Below, piece by piece: positions 31,130 to 45,896 of a stretch of DNA of 64,000 bases. The translations under genes were made by a program, and so were the position numbers. Under the pieces are notes generated by a model that saw only the letters and a list, made by a program, of their open reading frames with translations, was not told where the DNA came from and made no database searches. The stretch's first letter is position 1. The number at the start of each line of letters is the position of its first letter. The stretch spans positions 62,001 to 126,000 of the forward strand of contig JAEUHH010000055.1 of the NCBI GenBank assembly GCA_016795505.1, given 5' to 3'. Origin of the DNA: Verrucomicrobiales bacterium. GTDB taxonomy: Bacteria; Verrucomicrobiota; Verrucomicrobiia; Verrucomicrobiales; DEV007.

Positions 31130-31546
31130 GGGATGCGGACGGTATGCTGCGTGCGCCTATTTGAGCCACGCCGCCCCCCGGTCTGTAAAGCCCCTAGAAA
31201 GGCGCGTCCGCGCCGGATTTTTCTTGGGTTTGAAGTTCCAGGTTCAACGTTCAAAGTTCAAAGTTCCGGGTTGGGTGTTTGGGGGCGGCGAATGGGGGGC
31301 GTTCGCACAGAGGCCCGGAGAGGCCACGGGACGCGGAGGTCGGTTCGCCGGTTCCGGGTTCGCGGTTCGGCGTTCATCGCCCCGCGCACTTCCCAGATCC
31401 GGAGGATGAGGGATGAGGCGGAGCCCCCTCTGTCTCCACCGATCATACCCTGTCTGATCGGCGATGAGACAGGGTCTGATCAGTACAACAACGCGGCGGG
31501 CCGTGCCCGGCCCGCCGCTGGCGGAAGGAGATTTATCTCAGGCGTC
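31130..31546. repeat. Repeat-rich intergenic region with heptamer tracts and copy D of the dispersed element
   Basis: There is no gene here. Two tracts follow a 7-bp GTTCNNN period: 31234-31275 (GTTCCAG GTTCAAC GTTCAAA ...) and about 31342-31378 with G+C-rich variants (GGTTCGC, GGTTCCG). Between them lies an A/G-rich motif (CACAGAGGCCCGGAGAGG). At 31439-31483 is copy D of the 22-bp-unit element: CGATCATACCCTGTCTGATC+GG, then the inverted CGATGAGACAGGGTCTGATC+AG. The same order recurs at 47332-47674. Confidence 0.75.
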
Positions 31547-32446
31547 TCAGCCACCCACGTTCACGGTTTGTTCCGCGCTCCACACGCCCACTTGGGCATC
31601 GCCCACGCGGTAAATGGCGCGGTATCTCCACGTCGTGAGCGCAGCGGGAAAGGGCGCTGTGTCGGTGTAGCCGGGGGTGGTGTCGTAGGCCAAATCAGTC
31701 CAGCCCTGGCCCCGGTCCACTTGGATCTGAATCATGTCCAGATACTTGCCGTGGCCGCCCCAACCCCAGTCGATGAACACCTGCCCGCCGACGATCTTCA
31801 CTTTGAAGTCAGCCTGGAGGGTTTCGTAATCGGGTCCGGCATCTTGGGTGCCGATGATGCCGAGATCGGTGCAGAGTTGGGAGGTGCAGGCGGTGGACTC
31901 TTGGATCACTTGCACGAAGGAGAAAATGCGGTCCAGCGCGCCGGGAGGGCGGGGTACCACGGCGGGCAGGGTGCCCGGGGCGGGCTCGGCGGCGGGCAGG
32001 GCCGGCGGGTTCCAGACCGGGAGGACCATGGCGGCCTCGCCCACGCCCCGCTGGGCGTCACGGATGAAATCGGTGTTAGATTTTGACCACGGTTTCTGCG
32101 CGGGCTGGTAGGTCCCGAGCAGGTAGATGAGCCAGCGGCAATCGGCCACGATGCCGGCGGCCTGGGCTGAGACACCGAGGGAAGCGGCGTGCTCGAGGAT
32201 TTTGATGTAGAAGTTCGTGAGCCAGAGGATCTGGGCTGGCACGTTCGTCGGGTAGTAGGAGTTATGTTTCATTTTGCGTTTTTTTTGGTTGGTTTTCGGA
32301 TCAGAAAGGGTGGGGTACGGAGTGAAGCCGGGGTCGCCCGGTTCGAGGTAAACGCCCATGCCGTTGATAAAACGGAGATTCGGATCGCCGAAGACAAAGG
32401 GCGTGCCGGTAAAGGGGTTGATGGCTCCAAATCGTAGTGGCTGCAT
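31547..32446 (-). CDS. Fibronectin-like hypothetical protein of an accessory cassette
   Basis: A 299-residue protein if the ATG at 32446 is used (MQPLRFGAINPFTGTPFVFG), or 241 residues from the ATG at 32272 (MKHNSYYPTNVPAQILWLTN). The region between the two starts (RFINGMGVYLEPGDPGF) looks like genuine protein sequence, so the longer form is reported. It may instead be a separate small gene joined by readthrough. The middle part is helical (DFIRDAQRGVGEAAMVLPV) and the C-terminus is fibronectin-III-like (IQVDRGQGWTDLAYDTTPGY ... WRYRAIYRVGDAQVGVW). Families like this recur in Verrucomicrobiota and Bacteroidota as uncharacterised proteins beside collagen-like genes, as here. No signal peptide is seen. 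Confidence 0.65.
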   Translation of the reverse strand: MQPLRFGAINPFTGTPFVFGDPNLRFINGMGVYLEPGDPGFTPYPTLSDPKTNQKKRKMKHNSYYPTNVPAQILWLTNFYIKILEHAASLGVSAQAAGIVADCRWLIYLLGTYQPAQKPWSKSNTDFIRDAQRGVGEAAMVLPVWNPPALPAAEPAPGTLPAVVPRPPGALDRIFSFVQVIQESTACTSQLCTDLGIIGTQDAGPDYETLQADFKVKIVGGQVFIDWGWGGHGKYLDMIQIQVDRGQGWTDLAYDTTPGYTDTAPFPAALTTWRYRAIYRVGDAQVGVWSAEQTVNVGG

Positions 32447-32466
32447 GGGGCGCTGGGCGTTGATTC

Positions 32467-32787
32467 CGAGGCGTTTGGAGGAGCGCGTCCGCGGGCAGGA
32501 GGCGTTTTCTTTGCTCCGGGAGGCGTTTTCTTTGCTCCGGGAGGCGCGCCTCCAGACTTTGGAGGCACACCTCCATGGTCTCCGCGAGATGATGAAGGCG
32601 CTGGAGGCGCACTTCCAGTTTTTGGAGGCGCGCATCCAAAGCCATTGCGAGATGATAAAGGCGCTGGAGGTGCGCCTCCAGCCCTTGGATGCGCGCCTCC
32701 AACCATTGGAGGTGGGCCTCCAGGACTTGAAAGTGCGCTTCCAGTCTTTGGGGGTGCGCCTCCGGTCTTTGGAGGCACACCTCTAAA
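32467..32787. repeat. Degenerate 21-bp tandem repeat of self-complementary units encoding leucine heptads
   Basis: About 15 units of 21 bp. Two units at 32500-32520 and 32521-32541 are exact copies. Most others follow TTGGAGGTGCGCCTCCA+nnnn, so each unit is a small inverted repeat. Because of this symmetry both strands are open in a frame spelling L-E-x-x-L-Q-x heptads. The plus-strand frame (ATG at 32445) ends with a stop directly after the last unit. The minus-strand frame runs from about 33023 and contains Pro residues within the heptads. Which strand, if any, is translated cannot be decided from sequence. The rest of 32788-33197 is an ordinary spacer with no gene I can support. Confidence 0.8.
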
Positions 32788-33197
32788 AGCTTCGCGGGAC
32801 GCCAATTACCGTAAAAAACCGATTTCCACCTTTCCTCGCGACACGGCCGGCACCGTTTAGCACCTTCGCCGACTGCCGGTTGCCCCCGCCAGATTTGCCT
32901 CACCGCGATGGCTTCCTTCCGCAGGGCAAATCCCCGCGCTGACCCTTCTAGTCGGGTGCGATCCAGGACGAGGCTTTCCAGCGTCATGGCAAAAATTCTA
33001 GGAAAATTCGCCACGCGATGCAAGCGGGTTTTTTCCCAAATTCTTCCGAAAAGCCGTCAGCCGGAATTCGCCTTGACGATCGGATCAGAAATCGGGCATC
33101 CTGCCCGGGAGACCCCGATCATCCTCTTCCAAAAATTCCTGGCAATCCTGTCCAAATAAACCTGTTAATTCAGCGCACCCCAAAACCCCGCCCTCCT

Positions 33198-33773
33198 ATG
33201 AGCTACGATCCCAACTGGCCCCAAAATGGCGAATTTGTCGATGGTAACCGCTTCCGCGAGCAATTCGCCGGATTGCATGATCTGATCCCCAGCAACGGCG
33301 GCGTCTCTGGCGCGCAGGTGGACAGCGTTTCGACGCTGGATCCCGGTCAGCCCGCCTCGGCTTCGGCGACGGTGGTCGATCAGACCCTGCATTTCACCTT
33401 TGCCATCCCGCGCGGCGACACTGGGGCGCAGGGACCTGCGTTCGCTTCGGCGCAGGTGGATGGGGTGACCTCGCTGAATCCGGGCGACGCGGCCCAGGCG
33501 AGCCTGACTTTTGATGGCTCGGTGCTGCGCTTCAGTTTCGGCATCCCCCGCGGCTTCGACGGCTCGCCGGGCGCGAACGGCATTGATGGGCAACCGGGCG
33601 TGCCCGGCGAGGTCTCGCAGTCCACCCTGAATGGCGCCATCGCCGGTACCAGCGCCAACAGCAATGGCGTGGCCACTCTGAACCTCTCCGTCAGCGATCC
33701 GCCGACTCAGATGGAGTTGCAGGCGGTATCGAACAAGCTCGATGAATTAATCCTGGCGTTGAGGCGGCTGTAG
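33198..33773 (+). CDS. Collagen-like protein of the accessory cassette
   Basis: A 191-residue protein starting MSYDPNWPQNGEFVDGNRF. It has two copies of a beta module (QVDSVSTLDPGQPASASATV ... HFTFAIPRG and QVDGVTSLNPGDAAQASLTF ... RFSFGIPRG). A short Gly-X-Y stretch follows (GFDGSPGANGIDGQPGVPG), then a C-terminal helix (MELQAVSNKLDELILALRRL) that could trimerise. This plan resembles phage tail-fibre-like or surface adhesin proteins, but no phage genes are nearby. It is divergent from the fibronectin-like gene, with the 21-bp repeat between them. The ATG at 33198 is preferred because an upstream extension to 33018 is unrelated to the module structure. Confidence 0.8.
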   Translation: MSYDPNWPQNGEFVDGNRFREQFAGLHDLIPSNGGVSGAQVDSVSTLDPGQPASASATVVDQTLHFTFAIPRGDTGAQGPAFASAQVDGVTSLNPGDAAQASLTFDGSVLRFSFGIPRGFDGSPGANGIDGQPGVPGEVSQSTLNGAIAGTSANSNGVATLNLSVSDPPTQMELQAVSNKLDELILALRRL

Positions 33774-33885
33774 GGGAGAAGCCAGTGGGGTGGAGTGAAG
33801 CAATCTGACTCAGTCGTTCTCACAAATCGAAGCGAACAAAAATGTCCTTCGGATCGGCTCACGGCTACCTGGCCTTCTCCGGGCG

Positions 33886-34818
33886 CTATCCGACGAAAAT
33901 ATGCTTTCGGTGATAGGCCAAGTAGGTCTCGGCAGGAACTGTCATTGACCGGCGGTCCAAAATCAGTGGCTGCCCATGGCGGCTCTGGAGGTAAAATTCC
34001 GGTGAGCTACCGAGTTCTTTGAAATGAATCGAAGATGCGACCACGATTCGCAATTGCTCATCTACAGTCCACATCCCCTTATCCAGCAACCAGTGACTGT
34101 TGGGAGTAAGGGCGAGGCCATTTTCTGGCACGTTCGGCCCCCCTTTCTTTAGCGGGCGAATGTGAGCTGCCTCCACCAGATGCAATCCTGAGGTTGTAGT
34201 AAACGAATACCCAGTCAGTGCGCACTGGAAATAATATCCCACCACAATAGACCGCCGGAAATTGGCGCATCGGCCCGCATTTAGGCTTTCTTCGTAATCT
34301 GCCGCTCTCTTTTTCAAAGCGGAAACGTCAATTCCATGCGGTAGTGGAATGCCGCAGGCCTCCGATAGGGCGACTTGCTCCAGCGGAGTGAAATAAGTCG
34401 CCACAAGAACTGACTTGGCCTGCTGTCTAAAAGTTGGTGATTGAAGGCACTTCCAAAGTTCGTCATTGATGACGATTAGTTTTGTCGTGTCACGAGAATT
34501 GGAAATTTTCCCGTCGGCAGTCAGTGTGGCGGACCAGACGCGATCTCTTTGAGGTCCCAATGCGTGAAACGGCAATCGCATGTCGCCATGATTTTTACGG
34601 CGAGGTTCGACGATGGGCCAGAAATTCAAAAATCGATAGACCAGTTCTGCGGTAAATTCCAGATTGGGCTCTTCCAAGTGCCGATCACCGATCATCTCGA
34701 TGACCGCCAATAACAAAAGTGGTTTATGGGGAGCTACGCCTTTGCCATCACCGTGGTCTCGATCCACGTTCAAGTTGGCTAAACGAAATAGCCACTGATC
34801 TTCTGTGTCGTCACTCAT
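33886..34818 (-). CDS. HNH endonuclease (McrA/COG3440-like)
   Basis: A 310-residue protein from the ATG at 34818 (MSDDTEDQWLFRLANLNVDR); an upstream TTG would add 12 residues. The N-terminal half (about 150 residues) resembles the specificity part of predicted restriction endonucleases. The C-terminal HNH nuclease shows LHLVEAAHIRPLKKGG, NGLALTPNSHWLLDKG and an upstream Cys in GYYFQCALTGYSF, giving the H-N-H ligand pattern. This group includes modification-dependent enzymes, and some HNH proteins cleave phosphorothioate-modified DNA. It is 66 bp after orf157 and on the same strand as the dnd genes. Its A+T content is clearly higher than that of flanking chromosomal genes, which suggests transfer. 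Confidence 0.88.
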   Translation of the reverse strand: MSDDTEDQWLFRLANLNVDRDHGDGKGVAPHKPLLLLAVIEMIGDRHLEEPNLEFTAELVYRFLNFWPIVEPRRKNHGDMRLPFHALGPQRDRVWSATLTADGKISNSRDTTKLIVINDELWKCLQSPTFRQQAKSVLVATYFTPLEQVALSEACGIPLPHGIDVSALKKRAADYEESLNAGRCANFRRSIVVGYYFQCALTGYSFTTTSGLHLVEAAHIRPLKKGGPNVPENGLALTPNSHWLLDKGMWTVDEQLRIVVASSIHFKELGSSPEFYLQSRHGQPLILDRRSMTVPAETYLAYHRKHIFVG

Positions 34819-34884
34819 TTTCAATTTGGCAAGAGGTTCTAGATTCAATATCAATTGGATACCTGGTGGTTTTCTTGGAAAGAT

Positions 34885-35358
34885 TTAGTTGCCGGATCGA
34901 ATCCGTTCCGTCAATCGCGCCGCATCTTCTTGGTTTTCGCATTCGATAAACTCAATCGGCAATTCCATTGAGTCCGAAAGTAGCCGCAATTGGTCAGTTA
35001 TTTTCAGCGCCGCTATCCTATGAGCTCCGTCGGCTACATCAATGATATTTCCCAAAGGGAGACTAAGGATTCCGAAGCTTGTACCAAGCGCATCAGGAAG
35101 TGGTTCGAACTTCGCCCCCTTCTCGAATAGCACAATCAAAGGAGGCATGATTGGAAGACCTTTTTCGGATGCCCATCTATTTGCCATTCTTTGAACCCGA
35201 CGGGAATTCAACCGAAGCCCGGAATCCAGTGTCGAATGTTGGCCAAGTGAACCCAAATAGGAAAGGATCATCTTCACGCTCCAACTGGCGACAAACTGGG
35301 AACGACCGCCCTTTCGAAGGCGCATTGCCAAAAATTCCAAGGTGGGTTCCTGATTCAC
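34885..35358 (-). CDS. Minimal DGQHR/DndB-like protein in the dndE position
   Basis: A 157-residue protein with a GTG start at 35358 that overlaps the dndD stop codon in GTGA. A longer open frame to 35574 lies inside dndD and is not coding. The sequence RVQRMANRWASEKGLPIMPP, LIVLFEKGAKFEPLP and LGNIIDVADGAHRIAALK follows the core of DndB (RIPEISGYI..., VRFDALP, FIINDGQHRRAAIMEAL). The Q of DGQHR is replaced by A, and the protein ends where DndB continues for about 200 residues. It may be a truncated paralogue or an independent small family. It contains none of the DndE pattern. Coupling to dndD suggests a required stoichiometry. Weak similarity by eye is the only evidence for the link to DndB. 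Confidence 0.75.
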   Translation of the reverse strand: MNQEPTLEFLAMRLRKGGRSQFVASWSVKMILSYLGSLGQHSTLDSGLRLNSRRVQRMANRWASEKGLPIMPPLIVLFEKGAKFEPLPDALGTSFGILSLPLGNIIDVADGAHRIAALKITDQLRLLSDSMELPIEFIECENQEDAARLTERIRSGN

Positions 35359-37286
35359 GCTGCAATGGGGAATTGATTTGAAATGCGAAATCCTTGAGCT
35401 CCGAAAGCGCTGGCCCCGACGATTTCCTCGTCGGTCGAAAGCAGGATTACCTGATGGGAGGCGTAGGGGAAGTAGCGTTCCACGAGGTGCTTGCGGTGGG
35501 ATGAATCGAGGCGCCCGAGGGGCGTATCGATAAGGGTGGGAATGGGCCGTCCCGATGCACGGGCCAAGCCCCACAGCATGGCGGTGGCAAGGAGCTGGCG
35601 CTCTCCGGCGGACAAGCGGTCAAAGGGCAAGGGACGCCCGAACCGGTCGCCCAGCGTCACCGCAAAGGTCTCGGGATCGATCCGAAGATCATGGACGAGG
35701 TCGCTTTTGCGGAGGAGGGCGCGGAACGACTCGAGCATGAGCGCCTCCATCCGGGCGACATGACGCTCCACGACCCGGGTCCGGAATTTGGCGAGCGTCT
35801 CCCGCACCCTGGCGGAATGCTTGAGCATGCGGAGACGGGAGTCTTCCGCCAATTTGGCGTCGAGGTCTCGGTCGCCGAAGGTCTCAATGCGCCTGAGGAT
35901 CTCGTCGCGCTGCTTTCGCAACGCCTCCTGGCGGGCCTTGAGGGTCTCGATCTCCGCCATTTTTTCGGCATGATCGCGGCGGGCCTGATCGAGCAGGTCC
36001 TGGAATCGGGCGATGGAATCCTGTTCGGGCACCCGGCCCAACTCGCCCTCGACCCGGGCGATGGCTTCCTCGGCCCGGCGCACGGCTTCGATGCCTGCGC
36101 GTGCCAGCTCTGCCGCCTCGGGCAGGATCCGGCTGCGCAGGTGGGCGACATGGGAGGCGAGATGATCGTCGGCATCGAGCAGCAGCTCCTCGGCCGCCTC
36201 GGCCCGGCGATCCTCCCGGTCCATCTGAAGCTGCTTGCCGACATGGGTCAGGTCTTTTTTCGCCAGGCCCATATCCTCCAACATGGACAGGATGTGCTCG
36301 TCCCGATCCTCCATTGCATCGACCAGCAGCCGGTTGTGACGAACGCTGGTCTCGTGGCGGGCCTGAGCCTCCACCTCCCCGAGGAGATCATCGATGAGCA
36401 GGAGGGGCAAAGGCCCGGCGGCCAACTCGCGGAGCCGATCCTCCTCCGCTTTGCGGTTGGCGACGAGTCGGGCCAGTTCCGTTTCCAACTCCTTCCGCTT
36501 CACAAACAGGTCTCCCCCTTCCCGACGGAAGCGGTCTTCGCGATCCCGAAGAGTCTTGCCGAGGCTGTTGGCCTCGTTCACGACCCGGCCGATGTCGAGG
36601 GAGCTTTGCTCCCACTGCCGCTCCACCTCGGCCAGCTCGGCCTGGGCGACGGAAAGGGCCCGCGCCGCAGCCGGATCGAGGCCCTCCTGCTTCTTCTTCC
36701 GCTCAAAGACCCGCAAATCGCCTTCCAGTCGGTCCACCAGATCGAGGCCCAGCAGGGACCGGATCGCGGTGCCGAGGATGGCGGCCGCGTTCTCCCCCTC
36801 TGCCAATTCCTTGATCTGCTCGCCGTCGAAGAAGAAGAGATTCGAGATCGACACGGGAAGGTAGGCATCAATGACTTCGTCCCAATGCTCGGTCAGGGTC
36901 TCATCCGGCACACCGTCGCGAAGCACCCGAACGGTTTCCTCAATCCCTTTCACTCCCTGACGCCAGGAGCGCTCCACCTCGAAGTGCCGCGTCTCGCCCT
37001 CGATCATCCGCCGGAAGCGAAGGGTGATGCCGGCCCCATCGCCCGGGTCGGTTCCCCGATGAATGCACTCGGCCAGGTAATCCCGGTACGCCATCCGGCC
37101 GCGGTTGGACACCTTTCCCTTGGATCCGTAGAGAACCAACTGCAGGGCATCGAGCAGGGTGGTTTTTCCGCCCCCATTCATGCCGCCGAACAGGATCACC
37201 GCCTTGTCCGAAGCCGGCGTCAGGATGGCCTCTTGCAAGCCGCCGTAGGCGCCGAAGTTTTCCAGTCGGATCGAATCCAGAATCAT
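35355..37286 (-). CDS. dndD: DNA phosphorothioation protein DndD (SMC-like ATPase)
   Basis: A 643-residue ATPase. The N-terminus MILDSIRLENFGAYGGLQEA and Walker A FGGMNGGGKTTLLDALQ near residue 33 are typical of DndD/Rad50-like enzymes. A long charged coiled coil follows (about 190-480). The C-terminal half-domain carries the signature FDRLSAGERQLLATAMLWGL and Walker B IPTLIDTPLGRLDSSH. DndD hydrolyses ATP and is thought to nick or open DNA for sulfur insertion together with DndC and DndE. It overlaps dndC by 4 bp (ATGA) and orf157 by 4 bp (GTGA). Confidence 0.95.
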   Translation of the reverse strand: MILDSIRLENFGAYGGLQEAILTPASDKAVILFGGMNGGGKTTLLDALQLVLYGSKGKVSNRGRMAYRDYLAECIHRGTDPGDGAGITLRFRRMIEGETRHFEVERSWRQGVKGIEETVRVLRDGVPDETLTEHWDEVIDAYLPVSISNLFFFDGEQIKELAEGENAAAILGTAIRSLLGLDLVDRLEGDLRVFERKKKQEGLDPAAARALSVAQAELAEVERQWEQSSLDIGRVVNEANSLGKTLRDREDRFRREGGDLFVKRKELETELARLVANRKAEEDRLRELAAGPLPLLLIDDLLGEVEAQARHETSVRHNRLLVDAMEDRDEHILSMLEDMGLAKKDLTHVGKQLQMDREDRRAEAAEELLLDADDHLASHVAHLRSRILPEAAELARAGIEAVRRAEEAIARVEGELGRVPEQDSIARFQDLLDQARRDHAEKMAEIETLKARQEALRKQRDEILRRIETFGDRDLDAKLAEDSRLRMLKHSARVRETLAKFRTRVVERHVARMEALMLESFRALLRKSDLVHDLRIDPETFAVTLGDRFGRPLPFDRLSAGERQLLATAMLWGLARASGRPIPTLIDTPLGRLDSSHRKHLVERYFPYASHQVILLSTDEEIVGASAFGAQGFRISNQFPIAA

Positions 37287-38893
37287 ATCTTTTCCTCCCC
37301 GTAGGTGGTCTCATCATCTTCGGCTACGCGAAGGCCGGAATAGGCGGCATTATCTTTGAGGCGGCGCTTTTCATCTACCAAGCGGTTCGCGCGACCGATC
37401 GCATCTTCTTCGTTATCGTAGAAATGTTTTGAAAACGTCTTCTCGAGCTGATCGAAAAGGCCTGCTCGCTTGGCCGTATTCCGCTGTTGCCGGGTCTTAC
37501 TGAGAAGTTCTCGTGCCAATTCGTAATGGAGGCGGTCATCACCACAAATCGCCTTAAGCTCCTGCATTTCGGACGCTCCAAGTACCAGGTCGTCGTCGAG
37601 GGCTTCGCCCTCATAGGGCTCTCCCGTTGCCTCTTCGAAGATTTTCGGAAGCAGATCTTCCATCTCGTGTTTGTCGACGATCCAAATTCGCCGGATCTCT
37701 CGAAGCTCTTCCGGCGTGATCAATTCAATCTTCCGGACATCGGGAGGGCCGTGTTTGCGAATGTGGGTCTGGGCGCTTAGGAGCTTGCGAAGCCATTCTT
37801 CCCGAGACTGTTGAGTATATGGCCCTGGAATCGGACGCCCCCCAGCCATGACGTTAACGGCACCAGTCATCCTCCTAAAATCCCTCAAATGCCGATCCGT
37901 GTTTTCGGGATCGCCGTTTGGATCACTGCTTCTAAAATCGAGAGAGTTGCGCAGATCCAAGAGGGGCATCATCCACTCTTTCTCTTCGTCGTTCTGAATC
38001 ATGGCCGTCATTGATTTGTCCTGCTCAACCAGCGTACAGACCCAGCACCCGAACCGGGAGTCCCCACAGGAAGGTGTGGACGAGTCAACCACAAGGGGGC
38101 ATTCCCCATCGGCAGATGCGCCGGCGTACATTCCCAGGAGATCACGATTGTTGTATCCCCAGGGATTTTTCACCTGCATGAGGAACATCCACACGTCGTC
38201 GTTGGTCCAATCCTCTACAGGTGTATAGACTAGAGAACCCGGAAGACTCGAATTGGGGCTCAGCCGATCCCGCAGTCGACCCTTTTCGTGCTTTTTCATG
38301 TTTGCCGCACGCCGAACGCTCTCGGCCTTCCGAGTACCCAACACGAGTATGGCCTCACCACTGGTTTTTACGATACCGTTGATGAAGGTATTCGACGGCC
38401 GGATCTTCAAACGCTCGGTACACCAGCGGAATTTATGACGCGGAGCTGGGTAACCCCTTCCAATCAGATTCACCCAAAACGTGTTCGAGATCTCAGGAGT
38501 AAGCCGGTGTGGTCTGATCGGAAGGTTTTGATTTTTCGCCATCCCCTTCATCACCTCCAGAGACTGGCTGACCCAAGACGCCACCACTGGATTCTCGACA
38601 AGGGTATCGGTCGAAATCACATGCACCGTCTTCCGCCGCTCCTCCTCCGGCAATCCTTCGATCGCGGACCAGACCAGTTGCAGCACGGCGGTGGAATCCT
38701 TGCCGCCGGAGTAGCCGATGATCCAGGGGACATCGTCAGCCGTGTAAAGCTCGCGGATCTCATCATGGAGCGCCTCGACGGTGGCCTGAAAGCCGAGCGC
38801 ATCAAAGGCGGAAACGCGACGTTTCAGTTCGGGCTCCGTCATGTCGAGCGGCAGGACCGGTTGATCGGCGTTCTTACTTCGTTTCGTTGACAT
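37283..38893 (-). CDS. dndC: DNA phosphorothioation protein DndC (sulfurtransferase)
   Basis: A 536-residue protein of the PAPS reductase-like family. It has PP-loop GYSGGKDSTAVLQLVW near residue 63, RHKFRWCTERLKIRP near 145, and a later Cys cluster (GECPLVVDSSTPSCGDSRFG followed by CWVCTLVEQDKSM) that should hold the 4Fe-4S cluster. DndC uses ATP to activate DNA backbone phosphate and transfers sulfur supplied by DndA. It is 15 bp downstream of a kinase-like gene that is not part of the standard dnd operon and overlaps dndD. Confidence 0.96.
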   Translation of the reverse strand: MSTKRSKNADQPVLPLDMTEPELKRRVSAFDALGFQATVEALHDEIRELYTADDVPWIIGYSGGKDSTAVLQLVWSAIEGLPEEERRKTVHVISTDTLVENPVVASWVSQSLEVMKGMAKNQNLPIRPHRLTPEISNTFWVNLIGRGYPAPRHKFRWCTERLKIRPSNTFINGIVKTSGEAILVLGTRKAESVRRAANMKKHEKGRLRDRLSPNSSLPGSLVYTPVEDWTNDDVWMFLMQVKNPWGYNNRDLLGMYAGASADGECPLVVDSSTPSCGDSRFGCWVCTLVEQDKSMTAMIQNDEEKEWMMPLLDLRNSLDFRSSDPNGDPENTDRHLRDFRRMTGAVNVMAGGRPIPGPYTQQSREEWLRKLLSAQTHIRKHGPPDVRKIELITPEELREIRRIWIVDKHEMEDLLPKIFEEATGEPYEGEALDDDLVLGASEMQELKAICGDDRLHYELARELLSKTRQQRNTAKRAGLFDQLEKTFSKHFYDNEEDAIGRANRLVDEKRRLKDNAAYSGLRVAEDDETTYGEEKI

Positions 38894-38908
38894 GGGAAAT
38901 GGCAGGAT

Positions 38909-39625
38909 TCAATTCGAGGAGAAGACCTCTGCGAGAAGGAGGTCGATGGGGAGAATGCCATCGGGCGTCGCGATGAAATTGTCTGGTTTTGCATCCAGAA
39001 TAACAAGCGACTGATCCGTGCTACGCCAGCCGTAGAAGGCGTTCAGAAGTCGTTCGAATCCCATTCCACGGAGGAATTCATCGACAGCCGCCTCCGAGGG
39101 GTATTGCTGCTTGTTGTCGGCTGCCTCCAGCCAGGGCTGGGAAATGACAAACGCAAATCCGCCGGTCGGCTGCCCAAGAATGAAGGGCCCCCCTGTGACC
39201 ACCATTCCGCCTTCGAGTTGGATCTCGTCGCCGAAGATCAGATTCTGGAGATGAAGGCGATGAAGGTATTCGCCGGCGTTCGCGGGACGCGGAACCCATT
39301 TGGAACCGTCTGGAGCCGGAACAAAACCAAACGAGCCCGGCAAGGTTCGTTTCACCGCCCGGTAGTCGCTCTCGCGAAACCGGACTTGGTGTTCCAGGGT
39401 GTGATCTGCCACCAAATGCAATGATTCCCACGCGGAAGGAGGAATCAGGCACCCTTCTTCTTCAGCCCATTGTCGGAGGAATGCTTGTTCCTCCAGACCT
39501 GAACCTCCTGAATTTGGTCGAGAATTTTGCTCAAGGGCGCGCGCGGCCTCTTCGCCAAGGCCTTGCGGGCCGCGATAACATCGGGGTGAGGGAAGGTCTG
39601 GGTTTTGTCCGGGTTCAACTCGCAT
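38909..39625 (-). CDS. Polyvalent-protein kinase-like protein inside the dnd operon
   Basis: A 238-residue protein from the ATG at 39625; a TTG further upstream is possible. Motifs QVRFRESDYRAVKRT near residue 80 (possible nucleotide-binding Lys) and VILDAKPDNFIATPDGILPI near 210 (D-x-K-P-x-N catalytic-loop pattern followed by a D in PIDL) match the putative Ser/Thr/Tyr kinases first described in phage polyvalent proteins (Kinase-PolyVal). IGQPTGGFAF and FVISQPWLEA look like the hinge. It lies between dinD (57 bp) and dndC (15 bp). Whether it is a true kinase and what it modifies are unknown. Confidence 0.72.
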   Translation of the reverse strand: MRVEPGQNPDLPSPRCYRGPQGLGEEAARALEQNSRPNSGGSGLEEQAFLRQWAEEEGCLIPPSAWESLHLVADHTLEHQVRFRESDYRAVKRTLPGSFGFVPAPDGSKWVPRPANAGEYLHRLHLQNLIFGDEIQLEGGMVVTGGPFILGQPTGGFAFVISQPWLEAADNKQQYPSEAAVDEFLRGMGFERLLNAFYGWRSTDQSLVILDAKPDNFIATPDGILPIDLLLAEVFSSN

Positions 39626-39682
39626 CAGGTTCGCAGTTTTGAGATGAAGTGTCAACAAGGGGTTCGGGGCAGGATACGGATC

Positions 39683-40537
39683 TCAGGGTTTCGGCAAACG
39701 TCCGGACTTCGATTCAATCCGCTTTTCCTCCGTCTTGACTCTTCGCTCGAGCTTTTTGATGTCTTCCTCTACCGGCAGATCTTCGGGCCGGATTCCACGC
39801 TGCCCGAGCATGTCCCGGACGCTCTGATTGTTCTGCACGTGTTCCCGCGTAATCGCCGTCTCTCCGTGCAGGTCGGCCTGGACGACATTGTGATTCGTCA
39901 TCTCTGTGGCAAGGTTTTTCGCGGCGATGGTGAGCGTGGGCAGGAAGTCGGCCAAGGGACGGGTTGTAGTGATCCCGAACTTCTCCTTCATCGCCTTGGT
40001 CGCGCAGCCGCCAAAAAGCGCGGCGTCTCCTTTGGACCGAATCCTGCCAAAACCTTCATCATCGACACCGCGTTCGTAGAGGTTGTCGGACAGCGCTTTC
40101 TCGGAAGCGCGGAGTTTCTCCCGCGCCTCAAGCCGTCCCTTCAGGAGGATGCGCTCCTCAATCAATTCCTGTCGACGGGTCTGGACCGCAAAATAGCTCT
40201 GGGCGAAAGCAATCGGCGGCTTCCGGGGATCGCCGTTCTGGGCGATGAGGTAACAAGCGTAGCGGGTGAGCATGAAATCATCGACTTCCCGGGCAGCTCC
40301 ACTCCCGAGAGCAACCATTTTCGTGACGCCACGAAAATGGTGTTCAGAATCATAACCCGTTGTTTCGCAGGAAGTAATTGCCCTTTGAACCGCGCCCAGA
40401 AAGTTTTCCCAACGGGCGTATCCGAGCGGTTCCTGGAGGTCGCGGGCAAACCAGAACTCCACCTCTGGCGCATCCGGATGAACGCGGGCGATCTCGTCGA
40501 ATTGGATTTGGAGCGTTTGGATCAGTTCAGATTCCAT
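39683..40537 (-). CDS. dinD: DNA damage-inducible protein D-like (DinD)
   Basis: A 284-residue protein close in length and plan to DinD of E. coli. It has a BRO-like N-terminal part (VEFWFARDLQEPLGYARWEN), a conserved core (SGAAREVDDFMLTRYACYLI, AQNGDPRKPPIAFAQSYFAV) and a C-terminal charged helix (DIKKLERRVKTEEKRIESKS). E. coli DinD is an SOS gene product that blocks RecA-mediated strand exchange. dinD-like genes are known within or near some dnd islands, here between dndB (28 bp) and the kinase-like gene. No LexA box could be recognised in the short gap, so expression probably follows the operon. Confidence 0.9.
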   Translation of the reverse strand: MESELIQTLQIQFDEIARVHPDAPEVEFWFARDLQEPLGYARWENFLGAVQRAITSCETTGYDSEHHFRGVTKMVALGSGAAREVDDFMLTRYACYLIAQNGDPRKPPIAFAQSYFAVQTRRQELIEERILLKGRLEAREKLRASEKALSDNLYERGVDDEGFGRIRSKGDAALFGGCATKAMKEKFGITTTRPLADFLPTLTIAAKNLATEMTNHNVVQADLHGETAITREHVQNNQSVRDMLGQRGIRPEDLPVEEDIKKLERRVKTEEKRIESKSGRLPKP

Positions 40538-40565
40538 GATCAGAATGGATGCGGGGTTATAGCCC

Positions 40566-41651
40566 CTATTTTTTCAGGTGCGCCTTCTCGACACGGGCCT
40601 CGTCCTCTTCCAAGGCAAGGCCGAACGCCTTTTTCACCACGTTGGTCGTGAGGATCACATTGGTCGTCACCTTGGAGACCTTGCCCCCGATGAGCGCCCG
40701 CCCCTCCCACACCGTGGCGTTGGAGCGCGACCAGTCGATGGTTTCCAGCGCCGCGATTTTTTTCCGCCAGTCCTTTGGGTGCTTCGTCAGCAGGCCATTG
40801 CCCGCCTTTCCGATCGCCTGGATGGCAATCCCATGGGAGTGGATGAAGCCCTCCCGCACCTCGCTGGCCGGTAGCCGGCCCTCCCGCACCTGGCCCCAGG
40901 CGGGAAAATGCTCAGCGACGGCCTCCCAGAAATCCCGGGCCAGAGAAGCATCCGCAACGAGATCTCCGGTCGCAAGCCCCTGCACCAAGTCGGCGCAGGC
41001 ATTGTAAAAAGCGGACAGGGTGAACAACTTGCGCGAGCGCTTCGCGAGGGATGATTTCTCCATGTCCACGATGTCGCGGAAGACCTCGGATTTCATGATG
41101 ACCAGCTTGGCCAGCTTCGCCTTTTCATTGCGATGATCGTAGAGCAGGCCCAGGGATCGGCTCGGGCGGATGGCGTGGCGGTTCAGGTCGGCGAACATCT
41201 GCTGGCACCGCTCCAACCCGATATCGAGGAAGAAGACCACGGCGATGGTCTCGTGCGCCAGCTCGGGTCGCTGATCCAGGGCCTCCATGATGGCGGCGCG
41301 GCGGTGTTGGCCGTCATTGATGATGAACTTCGCCTCCATCGGTACCCGGAGCAGGCCGAGCCGGTCCTGTCCGGGCAGCGCATCGAAGCGGACCGCGGAA
41401 TCGATCGAGACGGTGAGGGCTGAAAAGACGTAGTCGTCCGGGTTGTCGATGATGTAGCCCGAGATCTCGGGGATTCGGGCCTTGTTCAAGGTGCGCTGGG
41501 CCCGCAACTCCGGGGGCAGCTCGTCCTCATCAAAAATCGAAATCTGACGCAGCATGCGGAGGGTCCACATGGCGACGTAGTATTCGCGGCGCGCCTGTAG
41601 ACCGCGGATGACGGGAAAGGTGAGGACGGGCTCTGTATCCATGGTGTTCAT
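40566..41651 (-). CDS. dndB: DNA phosphorothioation regulator DndB
   Basis: A 361-residue DGQHR-domain protein. Key stretch FIINDGQHRRAAIMEALDQR near residue 115, followed by FLDIGLERCQQMFADLNRHA. In Dnd systems DndB represses the modification genes and affects modification level and position. The ATG at 41651 is chosen because it overlaps the stop codon of orf148 (ATGA). Five more codons are possible upstream. It is divergent from dndA with orf148 between them. Confidence 0.95.
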   Translation of the reverse strand: MNTMDTEPVLTFPVIRGLQARREYYVAMWTLRMLRQISIFDEDELPPELRAQRTLNKARIPEISGYIIDNPDDYVFSALTVSIDSAVRFDALPGQDRLGLLRVPMEAKFIINDGQHRRAAIMEALDQRPELAHETIAVVFFLDIGLERCQQMFADLNRHAIRPSRSLGLLYDHRNEKAKLAKLVIMKSEVFRDIVDMEKSSLAKRSRKLFTLSAFYNACADLVQGLATGDLVADASLARDFWEAVAEHFPAWGQVREGRLPASEVREGFIHSHGIAIQAIGKAGNGLLTKHPKDWRKKIAALETIDWSRSNATVWEGRALIGGKVSKVTTNVILTTNVVKKAFGLALEEDEARVEKAHLKK

Positions 41652-42094
41652 CGGGCGGAGAGGCATTCAAACTCGGCCCGCGCCGCGGACTCCTCGGCCT
41701 GCGCCTGCCGACAGGCAAGTTCGGCGGCGACCAGCGTCCGTGCGTCGGCGTCGGATAGCTGCGCCTCCCGAAGATTTTGCTCGGCCACCATGAGGCGGAA
41801 GTGAGCCCGTCGGACCCGGAAATTGGCCTGGAAGAATTCCGCATCGGCCGTGTAGATCGCCAAGGCCTCTCGGGCTCCAGCTCGGAACTGTCGAGCCGTC
41901 TGCCAGTCCAAGGTGCTGTGGAAGACGTCCTGGCGCATAATGTCCTCCAAAATGGGCAGAATTTCGACGGGCGCGCCGGTCGCCCGTGCGATGTCTTCCG
42001 CATAGCCGCTGAGAGGGACGTTTTCCATTTGCATGCCGTAGGGTTTGGCGTTGACTGCTTTCGATTCGGCATAATCAACTCTCGTGTATTTCAT
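41648..42094 (-). CDS. Hypothetical protein at the head of the dnd operon
   Basis: A 148-residue, largely helical protein. The C-terminal part is Ala/Glu-rich and coiled-coil-like (VAEQNLREAQLSDADARTLV, ELACRQAQAEESAARAEFEC). The N-terminal part contains GAPVEILPILEDIMRQDVF. I do not recognise the family. It is translationally coupled to dndB by a 4-bp overlap and is the first gene of the minus-strand operon, 61 bp from the divergent dndA start. A role in the phosphorothioation system is inferred from position only. Confidence 0.75.
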   Translation of the reverse strand: MKYTRVDYAESKAVNAKPYGMQMENVPLSGYAEDIARATGAPVEILPILEDIMRQDVFHSTLDWQTARQFRAGAREALAIYTADAEFFQANFRVRRAHFRLMVAEQNLREAQLSDADARTLVAAELACRQAQAEESAARAEFECLSAR

Positions 42095-42155
42095 GTCAAG
42101 ACCGTTTGTTTGTCAAAATTACTATTTATTAAAACATACTTGATTCGAATTTTCC

Positions 42156-43289
42156 GTGAACCCCACCTACCTCGACTGCAACGCCACGACCCCACTCGAT
42201 CCCGAGGTGCGGGAAATCCTGTTGCGATATCTGGCCGAAGAATACGGCAATGAGGGCAGTCGCACCCACGAGTATGGGGCCCGCGCCAAGCAGGCCGTAC
42301 AGCGGGCGCGAGATCAGGTGGCGGCCGTAGTGGAGGCGACCCGGGACGAGGTGATTTTCACGAGCGGCGCCACGGAGAGCAACAACATCGCCCTGTTGGG
42401 CCTCGCGGACCACGGCCGGGAAAGTGGGCGCCGGCATGTGATCACCACTGTGATCGAGCACAAGGCCGTGCTGGAACCTTGTGAGGCTCTGGAAAAGGTG
42501 GGCTTTGAGGTGAGCCGCCTGGGCGTGGACTCCAGCGGGCGGATCGATCCTGCCGAGCTGGCTGCCACGCTCCGGCCTGAGACGCTGCTGGTCTCCGTGA
42601 TGCAGGTCAACAACGAGACCGGCATCCGCCAGCCGATGGCAGAGATCACCGCCACGCTGGCCGATCACCCGGCCTATCTCCACACCGATGCCGCGCAGGG
42701 CTTTGGCAAGGATCTTGAAACGCTGAAGCTGCGGCGGATCGACCTGATCAGCATCAGCGGGCACAAGCTTTTTGCCCCGAAAGGTGTGGGCGCTCTCGTG
42801 ATGCGCCGCCGAGGTTACGACCGGGTTCCCTTGCGACCGCTGACTTACGGAGGTGGTCAGGAACGGGGCTTGCGGCCGGGAACGCTGCCGGTGGCGCTCA
42901 TCGCCGCCCTGGGAACCGCGGCGGAGGTTGCGGTGCGGGATCGCGAAAAGCGGCAGCGACGTTGTCGAGAGATCCGAGAGGCGGCGCTGGAAGCGCTGGC
43001 GCCGCTGTCACCCAAGATCAGCGGTGACGAGTCCCATGCCATGGATCATGTCCTCAACGTGGCATTCGGCAACCTCGACTCAGAGGCGCTCATGGTGGCG
43101 GTGAAGGATCTGATTGCCATCTCCAATGGCTCCGCTTGCACCTCCAGCAGCTACACCCCCAGCCATGTGCTGCGAGCGATGGGAATGACCGACGATGAGG
43201 CGAACAGCTGCGTCCGGGTCAGTTGGTGCCACCTCACTCCCGATGTCGACTGGGGCGCGGTAGCTGCGAGAATTCAGTCCCTGCTGTAG
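42156..43289 (+). CDS. dndA: Cysteine desulfurase DndA (IscS-like)
   Basis: A 377-residue pyridoxal-phosphate enzyme with a GTG start at 42156. Motifs are YLDCNATTPLDPEVR at the N-terminus, FTSGATESNNIALLG near residue 70, PLP lysine in SISGHKLFAPKGVGAL near 205 and catalytic cysteine in SNGSACTSSSYTPSHV near 328. It takes sulfur from L-cysteine and passes it to DndC. The gene is divergent from the other dnd genes across a 61-bp AT-rich spacer that must contain both promoters. It is convergent with the HARE-HTH gene. Confidence 0.93.
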   Translation: MNPTYLDCNATTPLDPEVREILLRYLAEEYGNEGSRTHEYGARAKQAVQRARDQVAAVVEATRDEVIFTSGATESNNIALLGLADHGRESGRRHVITTVIEHKAVLEPCEALEKVGFEVSRLGVDSSGRIDPAELAATLRPETLLVSVMQVNNETGIRQPMAEITATLADHPAYLHTDAAQGFGKDLETLKLRRIDLISISGHKLFAPKGVGALVMRRRGYDRVPLRPLTYGGGQERGLRPGTLPVALIAALGTAAEVAVRDREKRQRRCREIREAALEALAPLSPKISGDESHAMDHVLNVAFGNLDSEALMVAVKDLIAISNGSACTSSSYTPSHVLRAMGMTDDEANSCVRVSWCHLTPDVDWGAVAARIQSLL

Positions 43290-43292
43290 ATA

Positions 43293-43500
43293 GACCCCTT
43301 GCCAAAAAACTTTGCCGAAAAAATCTCTCTTAATGGGTATGTATTCGGCTCGCTTCGCTCGGGAGGTCTCGAGAGAGCGGCCAGAATCTCCACTGGCTTC
43401 GTTGCTTCTCAGTCACGCAGCTCGCTGCGCTCCTTCGTTCGCGCCTTGCCAGTGAAAATTCTGACTCGCTCTTTTCGGCAAATCTTTCTGGCAAAAGGTC
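43293..43500. repeat. MITE-like imperfect palindrome between convergent defence genes
   Basis: The ends GACCCCTTGCCAAAAAACTT (43293-43312) and the complement of 43481-43500 (GACCTTTTGCCAGAAAGATT) are imperfect inverted repeats continuing with TTGCCGAAAA. A second, inner pair is GCCAGAATCTCCACTGGC (43380-43397) against GCCAGTGAAAATTCTGAC (43448-43465). The element fills exactly the gap between the dndA stop and the stop of the HARE-HTH gene. It contains no ORF. It may be a miniature transposable element or a large bidirectional terminator. Confidence 0.65.
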
Positions 43501-43503
43501 TAA

Positions 43504-43743
43504 TCAGGGCAGCAGGGAGAATCGGCCATCCGGTTCCTGACTGAAAACTTTGGTCTTTGCCGGGGTGCAGGCATGGGCATTTTCGGCATGGCGCTTGAGG
43601 GCCGCCAGAACGACGGCCCGTCGGCTGCCCGCGGTTCGGAATGGGAACAGTCCATCCCGCTCAATGACCTCGAGAATCTCCTCGACGGTGAGGGGGCGCC
43701 CGGCCCGGCGGAGCACTTCGAGAGCGGCTTGTTTGACGGTCAT
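43504..43743 (-). CDS. HARE-HTH domain small protein
   Basis: A 79-residue protein made almost entirely of a HARE-HTH (HB1/ASXL/restriction-endonuclease) winged helix: VKQAALEVLRRAGRPLTVEE, ILEVIERDGLFPFRTAGSRR, and a C-terminal DGRFSLLP strand. Such domains are found fused to restriction enzymes and chromatin proteins and probably recognise modified DNA or partners. It overlaps the stop codon of the Dnd-associated methyltransferase by 4 bp (ATGA), so the two are co-translated. Confidence 0.85.
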   Translation of the reverse strand: MTVKQAALEVLRRAGRPLTVEEILEVIERDGLFPFRTAGSRRAVVLAALKRHAENAHACTPAKTKVFSQEPDGRFSLLP

Positions 43744-45815
43744 GGCTTCGGTGGGACGGGTTTGCGGGCGAGACCCTGGGTCAGGCCTACTTGTTTTAGG
43801 GCAGACTCGAACTCTTCGCGGCTTGGTGCGCCAGTGTCATTGGACCCCAGCATCGTCTCCGTGATGCCCAGCTTGCGCAAGCGCTTGCTGTAGCGCTCCA
43901 TCGCCTCGCGCCTTGGGTAATCCGTCGGGAGGAAACGCTCCTTGAAAAACAGGATCTGATGCACCGGTCCCTCAGCGTGGTCGATCACGCTGACGAACAA
44001 GCGTCGCAGATCGATCTTGATGCGGGTAACCAGTTCTGGAAGCGCCTTTCCGTCAAAGTCGTCGTAATGCTGGAAGGTCAGTTTCCCGGAGTAAACATGG
44101 AGCTTGATCAAATCGGCCTGACGGGGATCGCCGAAAAGCCGGGCCGCGCACTCGATGTAGATCCGGAGGATCGGCGGCAGGCGATCGATGAGGGATCGAT
44201 GGATCGTGAAATGTCCTTCCTTTCCATCGAACCAACCGAATTCCAGATTCTCCATCGCCGCCTCGATTTCATCCGAGTCGCCCGCCGCAAACAACAAGGC
44301 TCTCGCCTCGTCGCATGCCCCGGCATAGTGACCGAAGAACGATTTGATGTCGGTCCGAAGGCCCTCGGAAAGATGGGCGAACGGGGTCCGCCGCTTTTGG
44401 AACTCACCGGCGGCGAGATACACGAGAAGGTCCTCTTTCCGCCGGCGCCTCGCATCCGCCAACGGTTCCTCGCCGAATTTTTCCGCGAAGAGCCGGACCG
44501 CCTGATTGATCGAAAGGCCAGCGGCCCTGAGATCCTCGGAGCGAAGATATTCCGCCGGCTTGGGCGCCCGCCCCAGCTCGATCAGCCGCTTCCAGAAATC
44601 ATCGAGCAATTCGGGATGCCGATCATAGGCGGACAGGCGAACACGCTGAGGCCTCAACAAGCGGAGTCGTGAATGGATCTGTTCCCAATCCACAATGCGC
44701 TGAGTCCGCCGAGATAGGAAATCCTGCTGATCATCGACATGGCGAAAGACATAGCAGATGCCCAGCTCCACCGGAATCGGCTCCGCATGAAGGGCCTGTT
44801 CGATCAGGCCGGTCAGTTCGGTGGGCTCGAAATGCTTTTGAAAGGTATTCCGCACCGTCACGAGACCGTCAGCGTAGGCTTCCGCATACGAGTAGGATTC
44901 CCGCCCGGTGATGAGAGTGGAAACGATGAGGAGTTTTCGGGTGTGTTCCCAGGCATCCACCAGGACTTCCACCCTTTCCGCCGGGTCTTCGATGACATTG
45001 AGGACGAATCCAAGGTTCACCACATCGGCCAACGACTTATCCGCATCGGGAGCAAAATGGGGATCCCATCCTGATGCTGCGTATCCCAGCACGCTCAGAC
45101 CCGCAACATCATCCCCAAGCCCACAACCATAGTCGAAAAACGTCTCCGTCTGCCGGATCAGGCCGTGATCCAACAGGCATTTTACTGGCTTGGAAAGATC
45201 GGCCCGCGACAGGGCGGTGCGATGCCGGTCAATTCGCCGGTCGGCTTCTGTGGCGGCGAGCGGCCCGTCTCCGGCTGGCTCCACCGAAATCAATTCGTGA
45301 CCGCGATAGCCAAGGCCCTTTTCCGCGAGCAATCGCTCCCAGTTCAGTTTGAATCCGATGGTGGCCGTCTTTTCATAAAGTCCGGCGCCCTCCTCCTGGT
45401 CGGTGAGTCTCCGGAAGCGCTCAGCCTCCGGGTGGGAATCCGGAAGAAAGGCCTCCTTCCGATGAAGGATCGGCGGATTGGACCGATCCCGATAGATAAT
45501 CCGGCGCGCCTTGGCGGTCGCCAGATCGATTGACACCGACTCGGTCAGGACAGGATGGGGATCGTCGAAAAAATCGGGATAGCTCAAAAAGGAACACCGG
45601 AGATCGACGGTCGAGAACTTGATGATGTTGAATTCTGAACCCAGCGAAAGCCGCTTCCGCAGTCGATCAGTGACGGTCCGAAGAGTCTCGGGCAACTCAA
45701 AAGTCGGATCGTCGAAAACGTAAATGGCCGTGGGAAGGCGTTTGCCGAACGCCAGCTCGGCGACGCTCTCGTGGAATGAGCCGGCTGATTGAGGGCGGGA
45801 AGGTTCAGAGGCCAT
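43740..45815 (-). CDS. DNA phosphorothioation-associated putative methyltransferase
   Basis: A 691-residue protein with the plan of the Dnd-associated methyltransferase family. Its N-terminal region of about 200 residues begins SFHESVAELAFGKRLPTAIY. An SAM-binding segment ETFFDYGCGLGDDVAGLSVL follows near residue 220, with VVNLGFVLNVIEDPAER further on. The C-terminal half is long and helical. Genes of this family occur only near dnd clusters and their role is unproven. It is followed by the coupled HARE-HTH gene, and its orientation towards dndA places it in a separate transcript. Confidence 0.9.
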   Translation of the reverse strand: MASEPSRPQSAGSFHESVAELAFGKRLPTAIYVFDDPTFELPETLRTVTDRLRKRLSLGSEFNIIKFSTVDLRCSFLSYPDFFDDPHPVLTESVSIDLATAKARRIIYRDRSNPPILHRKEAFLPDSHPEAERFRRLTDQEEGAGLYEKTATIGFKLNWERLLAEKGLGYRGHELISVEPAGDGPLAATEADRRIDRHRTALSRADLSKPVKCLLDHGLIRQTETFFDYGCGLGDDVAGLSVLGYAASGWDPHFAPDADKSLADVVNLGFVLNVIEDPAERVEVLVDAWEHTRKLLIVSTLITGRESYSYAEAYADGLVTVRNTFQKHFEPTELTGLIEQALHAEPIPVELGICYVFRHVDDQQDFLSRRTQRIVDWEQIHSRLRLLRPQRVRLSAYDRHPELLDDFWKRLIELGRAPKPAEYLRSEDLRAAGLSINQAVRLFAEKFGEEPLADARRRRKEDLLVYLAAGEFQKRRTPFAHLSEGLRTDIKSFFGHYAGACDEARALLFAAGDSDEIEAAMENLEFGWFDGKEGHFTIHRSLIDRLPPILRIYIECAARLFGDPRQADLIKLHVYSGKLTFQHYDDFDGKALPELVTRIKIDLRRLFVSVIDHAEGPVHQILFFKERFLPTDYPRREAMERYSKRLRKLGITETMLGSNDTGAPSREEFESALKQVGLTQGLARKPVPPKP

Positions 45816-45896
45816 CGCTTTTCTGAAACCACGATTTGTTCAGCTACCCCATGGAGTTTCTCCCTGAACCAACCTCCCCAACCATCAACCCCGCGA

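What the first reader, a model, noticed from the sequence alone, without database searches (positions are those of the whole stretch)
34885..43289. DNA phosphorothioation system of non-standard composition without dndE
dndA, dndB, dndC and dndD are clear, but no DndE-like protein follows dndD or appears elsewhere in the window. The minus-strand operon instead contains orf148, dinD, a polyvalent-type kinase, a minimal DGQHR-like protein and an HNH nuclease, with gaps of 66 bp or less and several 4-bp overlaps. The classical restriction genes dndFGH are absent. This may be a distinct Dnd subtype in which restriction and control are handled by other proteins.
Basis: partly seen in the sequence, partly recalled or inferred. 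Interest (0 to 1): 0.8.

Follow-up and report, generated by a model that had tools for sequence, protein, structure and literature searches.

The report
Dnd operon lacking dndE, carrying sulfur-reading nuclease
A bacterial gene cluster that should put sulfur into the DNA backbone has lost one of its essential genes, and in that gene's place sits a nuclease of the kind that cuts sulfur-marked DNA; the same swap happened independently in another bacterium, which suggests a switch from making the mark to attacking it rather than a new sulfur-writing system.

Summary
A complete dndA and a minus-strand operon, orf148-dndB-dinD-kinase-dndC-dndD-miniDGQHR-HNH, have no dndE. DndE profiles find none in the 96.6%-complete genome at E<=10, while they detect dndE in relatives. 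The interpretation (a distinct, working DndE-free subtype) is not supported. All close relatives of this operon but one carry dndE directly behind dndD. In the window, dndD homology stops abruptly after STDEEIVG, so the conserved C-terminal tail is missing. GC falls from 0.65 to about 0.48 at that point. The low-GC segment that follows encodes a truncated DndB-like protein and an intact SBD-HNH enzyme, the known phosphorothioate-dependent type IV restriction family (best structural matches SBD-Hga and SprMcrA with PT-DNA, and TagI). The exception among 80 DndD loci, L096, is an independent loss by phylogeny: dndE is replaced by a DndB-like gene plus an SBD-HNH of another clade, and dndD carries a 14-bp frameshifting deletion. 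Best reading: the writer was disabled while a PT-cutting nuclease took the dndE slot (0.55). A DndE-free active writer is not excluded (about 0.12). Against strict incompatibility, the relative L080 holds intact dndABCDE plus SBD-HNH. No assay was possible.

The parts
33886..34854 (-). SBD-HNH endonuclease (PT-dependent type IV restriction enzyme family); ATG alternative start at 34818
   Evidence: NF045808 5.5e-31, PF13391 1.9e-10; profile hits SBDHga1 5e-24, TagI 1.5e-9, ScoMcrA; model matches SBD-Hga and SprMcrA with PT-DNA, TagI; APHKP, LPFHAL and H-N-H motifs intact
34885..35358 (-). mini-DGQHR: 157-aa divergent, truncated DndB-like protein; GTG start overlaps the dndD stop (GTGA); occupies the dndE position; keeps DGAHR
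   Evidence: TIGR03187 7e-9, matching model 1-138 of 276; 23-32% identity to DndBs, lacks their C-terminal ~200 aa
35385..35429 (-). apparent breakpoint in dndD: family homology ends after STDEEIVG; about 9 residues of homology continue in frame +1; conserved tail ending GYF is missing; GC drops
35355..37286 (-). dndD, ABC/SMC-type ATPase; Walker A, signature and Walker B motifs intact; C-terminal tail lost
   Evidence: TIGR03185 2.9e-175; motifs; tail
37283..38893 (-). dndC; specificity loop YPAPRHKFRW (Arg-X-Lys, predicted GpsGCC type)
   Evidence: TIGR03183 1.7e-207; loop; rule from PMC12193691
38909..39658 (-). kinase-like protein resembling kinase domains of polyvalent proteins; accessory, not dnd-specific
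   Evidence: PF18762 E 0.0012, below cut-off; homologs inside 1000-2700 aa open frames and 4 paralogs in own genome
39683..40537 (-). dinD (Bro-N domain)
   Evidence: PRK11525 4.8e-110, over cut-off; PADLOC PDC-S13
40566..41666 (-). dndB, full length
   Evidence: TIGR03233 5.2e-144
41648..42094 (-). orf148: small accessory protein; homologs lie between dndB and dndC in two other dnd operons (L076, L085)
42156..43289 (+). dndA cysteine desulfurase, divergent from the operon
   Evidence: TIGR03235 2.1e-151, over cut-off; SNGSACTSS active-site motif
43504..43743 (-). HARE-HTH small protein
   Evidence: PF05066 1.7e-9
43740..45815 (-). DNA phosphorothioation-associated putative methyltransferase
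   Evidence: TIGR04096 9e-167, over cut-off

Best explanation
This is a horizontally acquired dndABCDE locus whose PT-writing module was disabled: recombination removed dndE and the 3' end of dndD. The low-GC segment now in that place carries a truncated DndB-like gene and an SBD-HNH endonuclease. SHOWN by sequence: no dndE, truncated dndD tail, composition break, intact SBD and HNH motifs, independent recurrence in L096. INFERRED from published genetics: without DndE no PT is made. INFERRED: the SBD binds Rp-phosphorothioate in incoming DNA and the HNH cuts nearby, so the locus now restricts PT-marked foreign DNA; loss of the writer removes the self-cutting hazard. The remaining dndABC, dinD, kinase-like gene and orf148 are relics or unrelated cargo, or have secondary roles.
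For: Close relatives have dndE directly after dndD: of 80 DndD loci, 65 hold dndE, and of the 15 without, 11 have a strong DndE elsewhere in their genome. The window genome has none. The dndD tail conserved in all relatives examined is lost at a GC break of 0.65 to 0.48. GC3 is 0.49 and 0.53 for mini-DGQHR and HNH, against 0.79-0.83 for dndD and dndB. A frame +1 remnant, PALSELKDF, fits the tail (P about 3e-4 per 9-mer). The HNH is SBD-HNH by profile, PDB sequence and fold, and its nearest homologs in the phylum are mostly stand-alone genes with no dndB/C/D near them. L096 independently lacks dndE, has DndB-like + SBD-HNH of another clade, and its dndD has a 14-bp deletion. dndE deletion abolishes PT in Salmonella (PMC9239217). 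PMC7461809 proposed that coexistence of SBD-HNH and dnd may mean a mutated dnd cluster.
Against: All remaining ORFs are intact and tightly spaced, as under selection. L080 has intact dndABCDE plus SBD-HNH, and several cyanobacterial loci have dndE and HNH, so coexistence is not forbidden. DndD coiled-coil 2, the DndE-binding part, is not clearly faster-evolving than in DndE-bearing relatives, so loss is recent or DndE is supplied in trans. The genome is a 120-contig draft. The frame +1 remnant is weak (full-tail HMM -1.5 bits).
Confidence: 0.55

Rival explanations
1. DndE is supplied in trans from an unassembled part of the genome or a plasmid, so PT is made and the SBD-HNH acts as its linked restriction or reader partner, as proposed for other dnd neighbourhoods.
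For: The draft genome is 96.6% complete. Many genomes whose dndD lacks an adjacent dndE carry it elsewhere. DndA, B, C and D motifs are intact and coiled-coil 2 is not relaxed. SBD-HNH near dnd is an accepted theme (PMC10853773).
Against: Members of this dndABCD clade keep dndE in the operon; unlinked dndE is mostly a cyanobacterial or sulfur-oxidiser pattern. The dndD tail is also lost. No hit at E<=10.
Confidence: 0.17
2. A genuine DndE-free PT writer: the mini-DGQHR (or orf148) replaces DndE as DNA-engaging partner of DndD, and the SBD-HNH is the cognate restriction enzyme.
For: Mini-DGQHR overlaps the dndD stop by GTGA, suggesting translational coupling, and keeps DG-HR. A DndB-like gene plus SBD-HNH in the dndE slot arose twice.
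Against: DndE is experimentally essential. Mini-DGQHR has no close relatives in any collection searched and gives a weak model with no fold match. The L096 counterpart is a full-length DndB duplicate with a frameshifted dndD. DndD's tail is lost.
Confidence: 0.12
3. A fully decaying relic: writer and nuclease both inactive, caught before the ORFs decayed.
For: dndE loss, dndD tail loss and mosaic composition.
Against: SBD and HNH motifs are intact and conserved with free-standing homologs; no premature stops in the remaining genes apart from the dndD tail.
Confidence: 0.12

Closest known systems
Canonical dndABCDE of the same clade (L073 Desulfuromonas, L074 Competibacteraceae, L075 Geomonas, L079 Verrucomicrobiaceae, L069 same family)
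   Same: dndA divergent, dndB-C-D order, 56-84% protein identity for A-C and 45-62% for DndD
   Different: All have dndE after dndD; none has dinD, the kinase-like gene or mini-DGQHR
PT-dependent SBD-HNH type IV endonucleases (SprMcrA, EcoWI; SBD-SRA-HNH ScoMcrA)
   Same: SBD + HNH architecture, sulfur-cavity and HNH motifs, NF045808 match, fold match
   Different: Usually not linked to dnd (<3.6% by PMC7461809); here it sits in the operon, downstream of the dndE slot; Leu-Pro as in SBD-Hga instead of Tyr-Pro; cleavage untested
L096 locus, MAG Proteobacteria bacterium RA.bin98
   Same: dndA, dndB-C-D, then DndB-like, then SBD-HNH, no dndE in the locus
   Different: DndB2 is full length; SBD-HNH groups with the cyanobacterial dnd-linked clade; dndD tail intact but gene frameshifted by a 14-bp deletion; genome holds a separate CxC-type DndE fusion
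IscS-DndBCDE-DndI
   Same: dnd writer with an HNH nuclease as partner
   Different: DndI is DUF262 + DUF1524-type HNH, spares PT-DNA and needs DndE-made PT; here the nuclease is SBD-HNH
dnd neighbourhoods with wHTH(SBD)-SAD-HNH nucleases (PMC10853773)
   Same: SBD-HNH directly downstream of dnd modification genes
   Different: That survey treats DndD-DndE as an obligate pair and attributes missing DndE to poor assemblies; here dndE is missing inside a 170-kb contig

Membership tests
Dnd PT-modification system (dndABCDE/iscS-dndBCDE) | Cysteine desulfurase DndA/IscS | tested here: met
   TIGR03235 2.1e-151 over cut-off
Dnd PT-modification system (dndABCDE/iscS-dndBCDE) | DndC sulfurtransferase with specificity loop | tested here: met
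   TIGR03183 1.7e-207; YPAPRHKFRW
Dnd PT-modification system (dndABCDE/iscS-dndBCDE) | DndD ATPase, complete | tested here: inconclusive
   ATPase motifs intact but conserved C-terminal tail missing
Dnd PT-modification system (dndABCDE/iscS-dndBCDE) | DndE, paired with DndD | tested here: not met
   No hit in window or genome at E<=10; positives in relatives
Dnd PT-modification system (dndABCDE/iscS-dndBCDE) | Phosphorothioates in the DNA | not testable with these tools
   Needs LC-MS/MS or iodine cleavage
SBD-HNH PT-dependent restriction endonuclease | Sulfur-binding domain with sulfur cavity | tested here: met
   SBDHga1 profile 5e-24; fold match to SBD-PT-DNA complexes; APHKP and LPFHAL
SBD-HNH PT-dependent restriction endonuclease | HNH nuclease domain with H-N-H residues | tested here: met
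   PF13391 1.9e-10; H231, N245, H254 invariant in the alignment
SBD-HNH PT-dependent restriction endonuclease | Curated NF045808 cut-off | tested here: not met
   107.7 bits against a cut-off of 180; the model is of NCBI type 'exception', so this lowers certainty on the exact subfamily, not on the SBD-HNH architecture
SBD-HNH PT-dependent restriction endonuclease | Cleavage of PT-DNA | not testable with these tools
   Needs purified enzyme
DndFGH restriction module | dndF, dndG, dndH present | tested here: inconclusive
   Absent among the window proteins scanned; genome-wide search not run
IscS-DndBCDE-DndI | DUF262 + DUF1524 HNH protein | tested here: not met
   The HNH protein matches SBD and HNH_2, not DUF262

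The most novel reading that the evidence does not exclude
A DndE-independent PT modification-restriction system in which a DndB-like ParB/DGQHR-type protein replaces DndE as DndD's DNA-engaging partner and an SBD-HNH enzyme is the cognate restriction component, evolved at least twice.
Probability: 0.1. Interest if true: 0.85.

Novelty: new variant of a known kind. Interest (0 to 1): 0.45.

Why it matters
SBD-HNH enzymes cut phosphorothioated DNA, so a cell that writes PT should not own one with matching specificity. A published survey found few dnd-linked cases and could only guess that the linked dnd cluster might be mutated. Here are two phylogenetically independent loci where an SBD-HNH gene follows in the dndE slot and the writer carries lesions: dndE gone in both, dndD tail lost in one, 14-bp frameshift in the other. 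That makes the conflict between PT writers and PT cutters directly testable, and shows a route by which a modification locus could turn into an anti-modification locus. It also gives a clean exception to the claim that DndD and DndE are an obligate pair whose absence reflects only bad assemblies. If the operon does make PT, it would overturn DndE's essentiality.

Tried and rejected
DndE hidden as orf148 or mini-DGQHR: rejected, a DndE HMM of the relatives gives no hit in any frame of window 30001-46000. DndE in trans: no genomic hit; the E=0.14 hit is GMP synthase. Mini-DGQHR relatives: none in genome contigs or viral contigs, only remote DndBs or phage proteins, so no synteny test on that gene was possible. 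DndD relatives in viral contigs: none. Kinase and orf148 in plasmids: none. Kinase-dinD as a dnd-specific module: rejected, absent from 80 dnd loci, kinase homologs are domains of long polyvalent-type proteins. Relaxed evolution of the DndE-binding coiled coil as a clock for the loss: no clear signal. AlphaFold of mini-DGQHR: low confidence, no fold hit. Association of linked SBD-HNH with dndE loss: Fisher p 0.014 on 30 related loci, post hoc and not independent, so only suggestive.
Full report
WHAT IS THERE. The window holds a dnd island at about 33.9-45.8 kb. On the minus strand, in transcription order: orf148 (42094-41648), dndB (41666-40566), dinD (40537-39683), a kinase-like gene (39658-38909), dndC (38893-37283), dndD (37286-35355), a 157-aa DGQHR protein (35358-34885) and an HNH nuclease (34854-33886). 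dndA lies divergently at 42156-43289 (+). Family searches put DndA, B, C, D and DinD above their curated cut-offs. The host phylum is probably Verrucomicrobiota: a same-phylum genome, G426, has a 1,165,709-bp contig equal in length to the Kiritimatiellae contig behind L085 (inference).

IS dndE REALLY ABSENT? Neither TIGR03184 nor PF08870 finds anything in the whole 6.55-Mb genome, which is 96.6% complete, and PF08870 finds nothing even at E<=10, while the same search rings in same-family and same-phylum genomes. A DndE HMM built from DndE proteins of the relatives finds nothing in any frame of window 30001-46000. The one weak genomic hit to a relative's DndE is GMP synthase. The contig is 170 kb, so this is not a contig end. 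Missing sequence (about 3%) and plasmids cannot be excluded.

HOW UNUSUAL IS IT? A DndD profile scan of the 84,980-species genome collection returned the 80 best DndD loci. Of these, 65 hold a dndE. The other 15 were checked genome by genome: 11 have a strong DndE elsewhere (E 6e-37 or better); three on short contigs show none (L082, L117, L121); and L096 has only a distant CxC-type DndE fusion on another contig. So, among loci with readable context, the window and L096 are the only two operons without a canonical dndE. Published analysis calls DndD-DndE an obligate pair and blames missing cases on assemblies (PMC10853773).

HOW WAS IT LOST? In 15 relatives dndD continues after STDEEI with a conserved tail (L-K-P-F, Y-x-L, T-x-I-x-x-GYF) and dndE follows dndD (annotated plasmid examples). 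In the window homology stops after STDEEIVG (about 35,429). The next nine codons fit the family only in frame +1 (PALSELKDF, P about 3e-4 per random 9-mer; the in-frame reading P 0.16), then homology ends. The full tail HMM does not score the frame +1 peptide significantly (-1.5 bits), so the frameshift remnant is suggestive only. GC drops here from about 0.65 to 0.45-0.50, and third-position GC from 0.79 (dndD) to 0.49 (DGQHR) and 0.53 (HNH), against about 0.9 in flanking genes. This looks like a replacement that took dndD's 3' end and dndE together.

WHAT REPLACED IT? (i) Mini-DGQHR: the N-terminal part of a DndB-like protein, with DG-HR kept and the C-terminal ~200 residues missing; 23-32% identity to DndBs. 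Its GTG overlaps the dndD stop. No close relatives were found. (ii) The HNH gene encodes an SBD-HNH enzyme. NF045808 (PT-DNA-binding restriction endonuclease) matches along its length at 5.5e-31, though below that model's cut-off. A family profile matches the SBD of Hga (5e-24), TagI (1.5e-9) and ScoMcrA. The AlphaFold model (pLDDT 78) matches SBD-Hga and SprMcrA SBD bound to PT-DNA, and TagI. Cavity motifs (APHKP; LPFHAL, Leu-Pro as in Hga) and H-N-H residues are intact. Its nearest homologs in the phylum are mostly free-standing: no dndB/C/D lies within about 10 kb (or the contig) in the 12 loci read; two lie near dndA-like sequence.

INDEPENDENT RECURRENCE. L096 has dndA, dndB (79%), dndC (72%), dndD (55%), then a full-length DndB duplicate, then SBD-HNH, and no dndE. 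Trees of DndB+C, DndD and all three place L096 with L074 (support 100), which has dndE, and the window outside that group: two losses. The two SBD-HNH proteins come from different clades. L096 dndD has a 14-bp deletion that breaks the frame. So where an SBD-HNH gene came in behind dndD in place of dndE, the writer has lesions both times.

HOW IT LIKELY WORKS. dndE deletion completely abolishes PT in Salmonella (PMC9239217) and dndA, C, D and E are described as essential (PMC8569181); I infer that no PT is made here. DndC's loop is R-H-K, predicting GpsGCC for the ancestral writer (rule from PMC12193691). SBD-HNH enzymes cut PT-DNA (PMC7461809), and SBD homologs expressed in E. coli block transfer of a dnd cluster (PMC6224610). 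I infer that the locus changed from PT writer to PT-DNA restrictor, and that losing the writer removed the danger of self-cutting. This matches one explanation offered for the <3.6% of SBD-HNH genes found near dnd (PMC7461809).

LIMITS. Coexistence is possible: L080 has intact dndABCDE plus an SBD-HNH downstream, and many cyanobacterial loci have both. The Fisher test on 30 loci (p 0.014) is post hoc. dndFGH was not searched genome-wide.

ACCESSORY GENES. dinD and the kinase-like gene are in none of the 80 related dnd loci. Kinase-like homologs are stretches of long polyvalent-type proteins or stand-alone copies, with four more in this genome. orf148 has homologs between dndB and dndC in L076 and L085, so it is a recurring small dnd accessory of unknown role. 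Restriction and control by these proteins is not supported; the SBD-HNH is the only clear effector.

VERDICT. Observation confirmed; the 'distinct subtype' reading at most partly supported; most likely a disabled Dnd writer carrying a captured PT-dependent nuclease, of moderate interest because it recurs.

Noticed in passing
   Followed up: partly
L076:8140-8418, L085:8222-8488 (+): orf148 homologs (motif IMRxxxFHxTLDW) between dndB and dndC in two other dnd operons: a small unnamed dnd accessory family.
   Followed up: partly
L096:10001-11993: dndD of the second dndE-less locus is broken by a clean 14-bp deletion in the coiled coil, with the other dnd genes intact.
   Followed up: yes
L163:1448-4978 (-): CxC-type DndD-like ATPase next to a 510-aa protein with an N-terminal DndE-like domain; similar fusions in L020 and L021.
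   Followed up: partly
L060:9516-11101: SBD-HNH gene next to a 45-aa dndA C-terminal remnant (62% identity) with no other dnd gene detected: possibly a further stage of the same decay.
   Followed up: no
L061 (G339:C7): dinD, SBD-HNH and kinase-like homologs within 10 kb without dndB/C/D genes: a possible defence island with the same three accessory genes.
   Followed up: no
L133, L138, L146, L139, L136: Cyanobacterial dnd-linked SBD-HNH proteins have a changed cavity motif (QYKP, LNKP or LNQP instead of PHKP), perhaps altering PT recognition where an intact writer is present.
   Followed up: no
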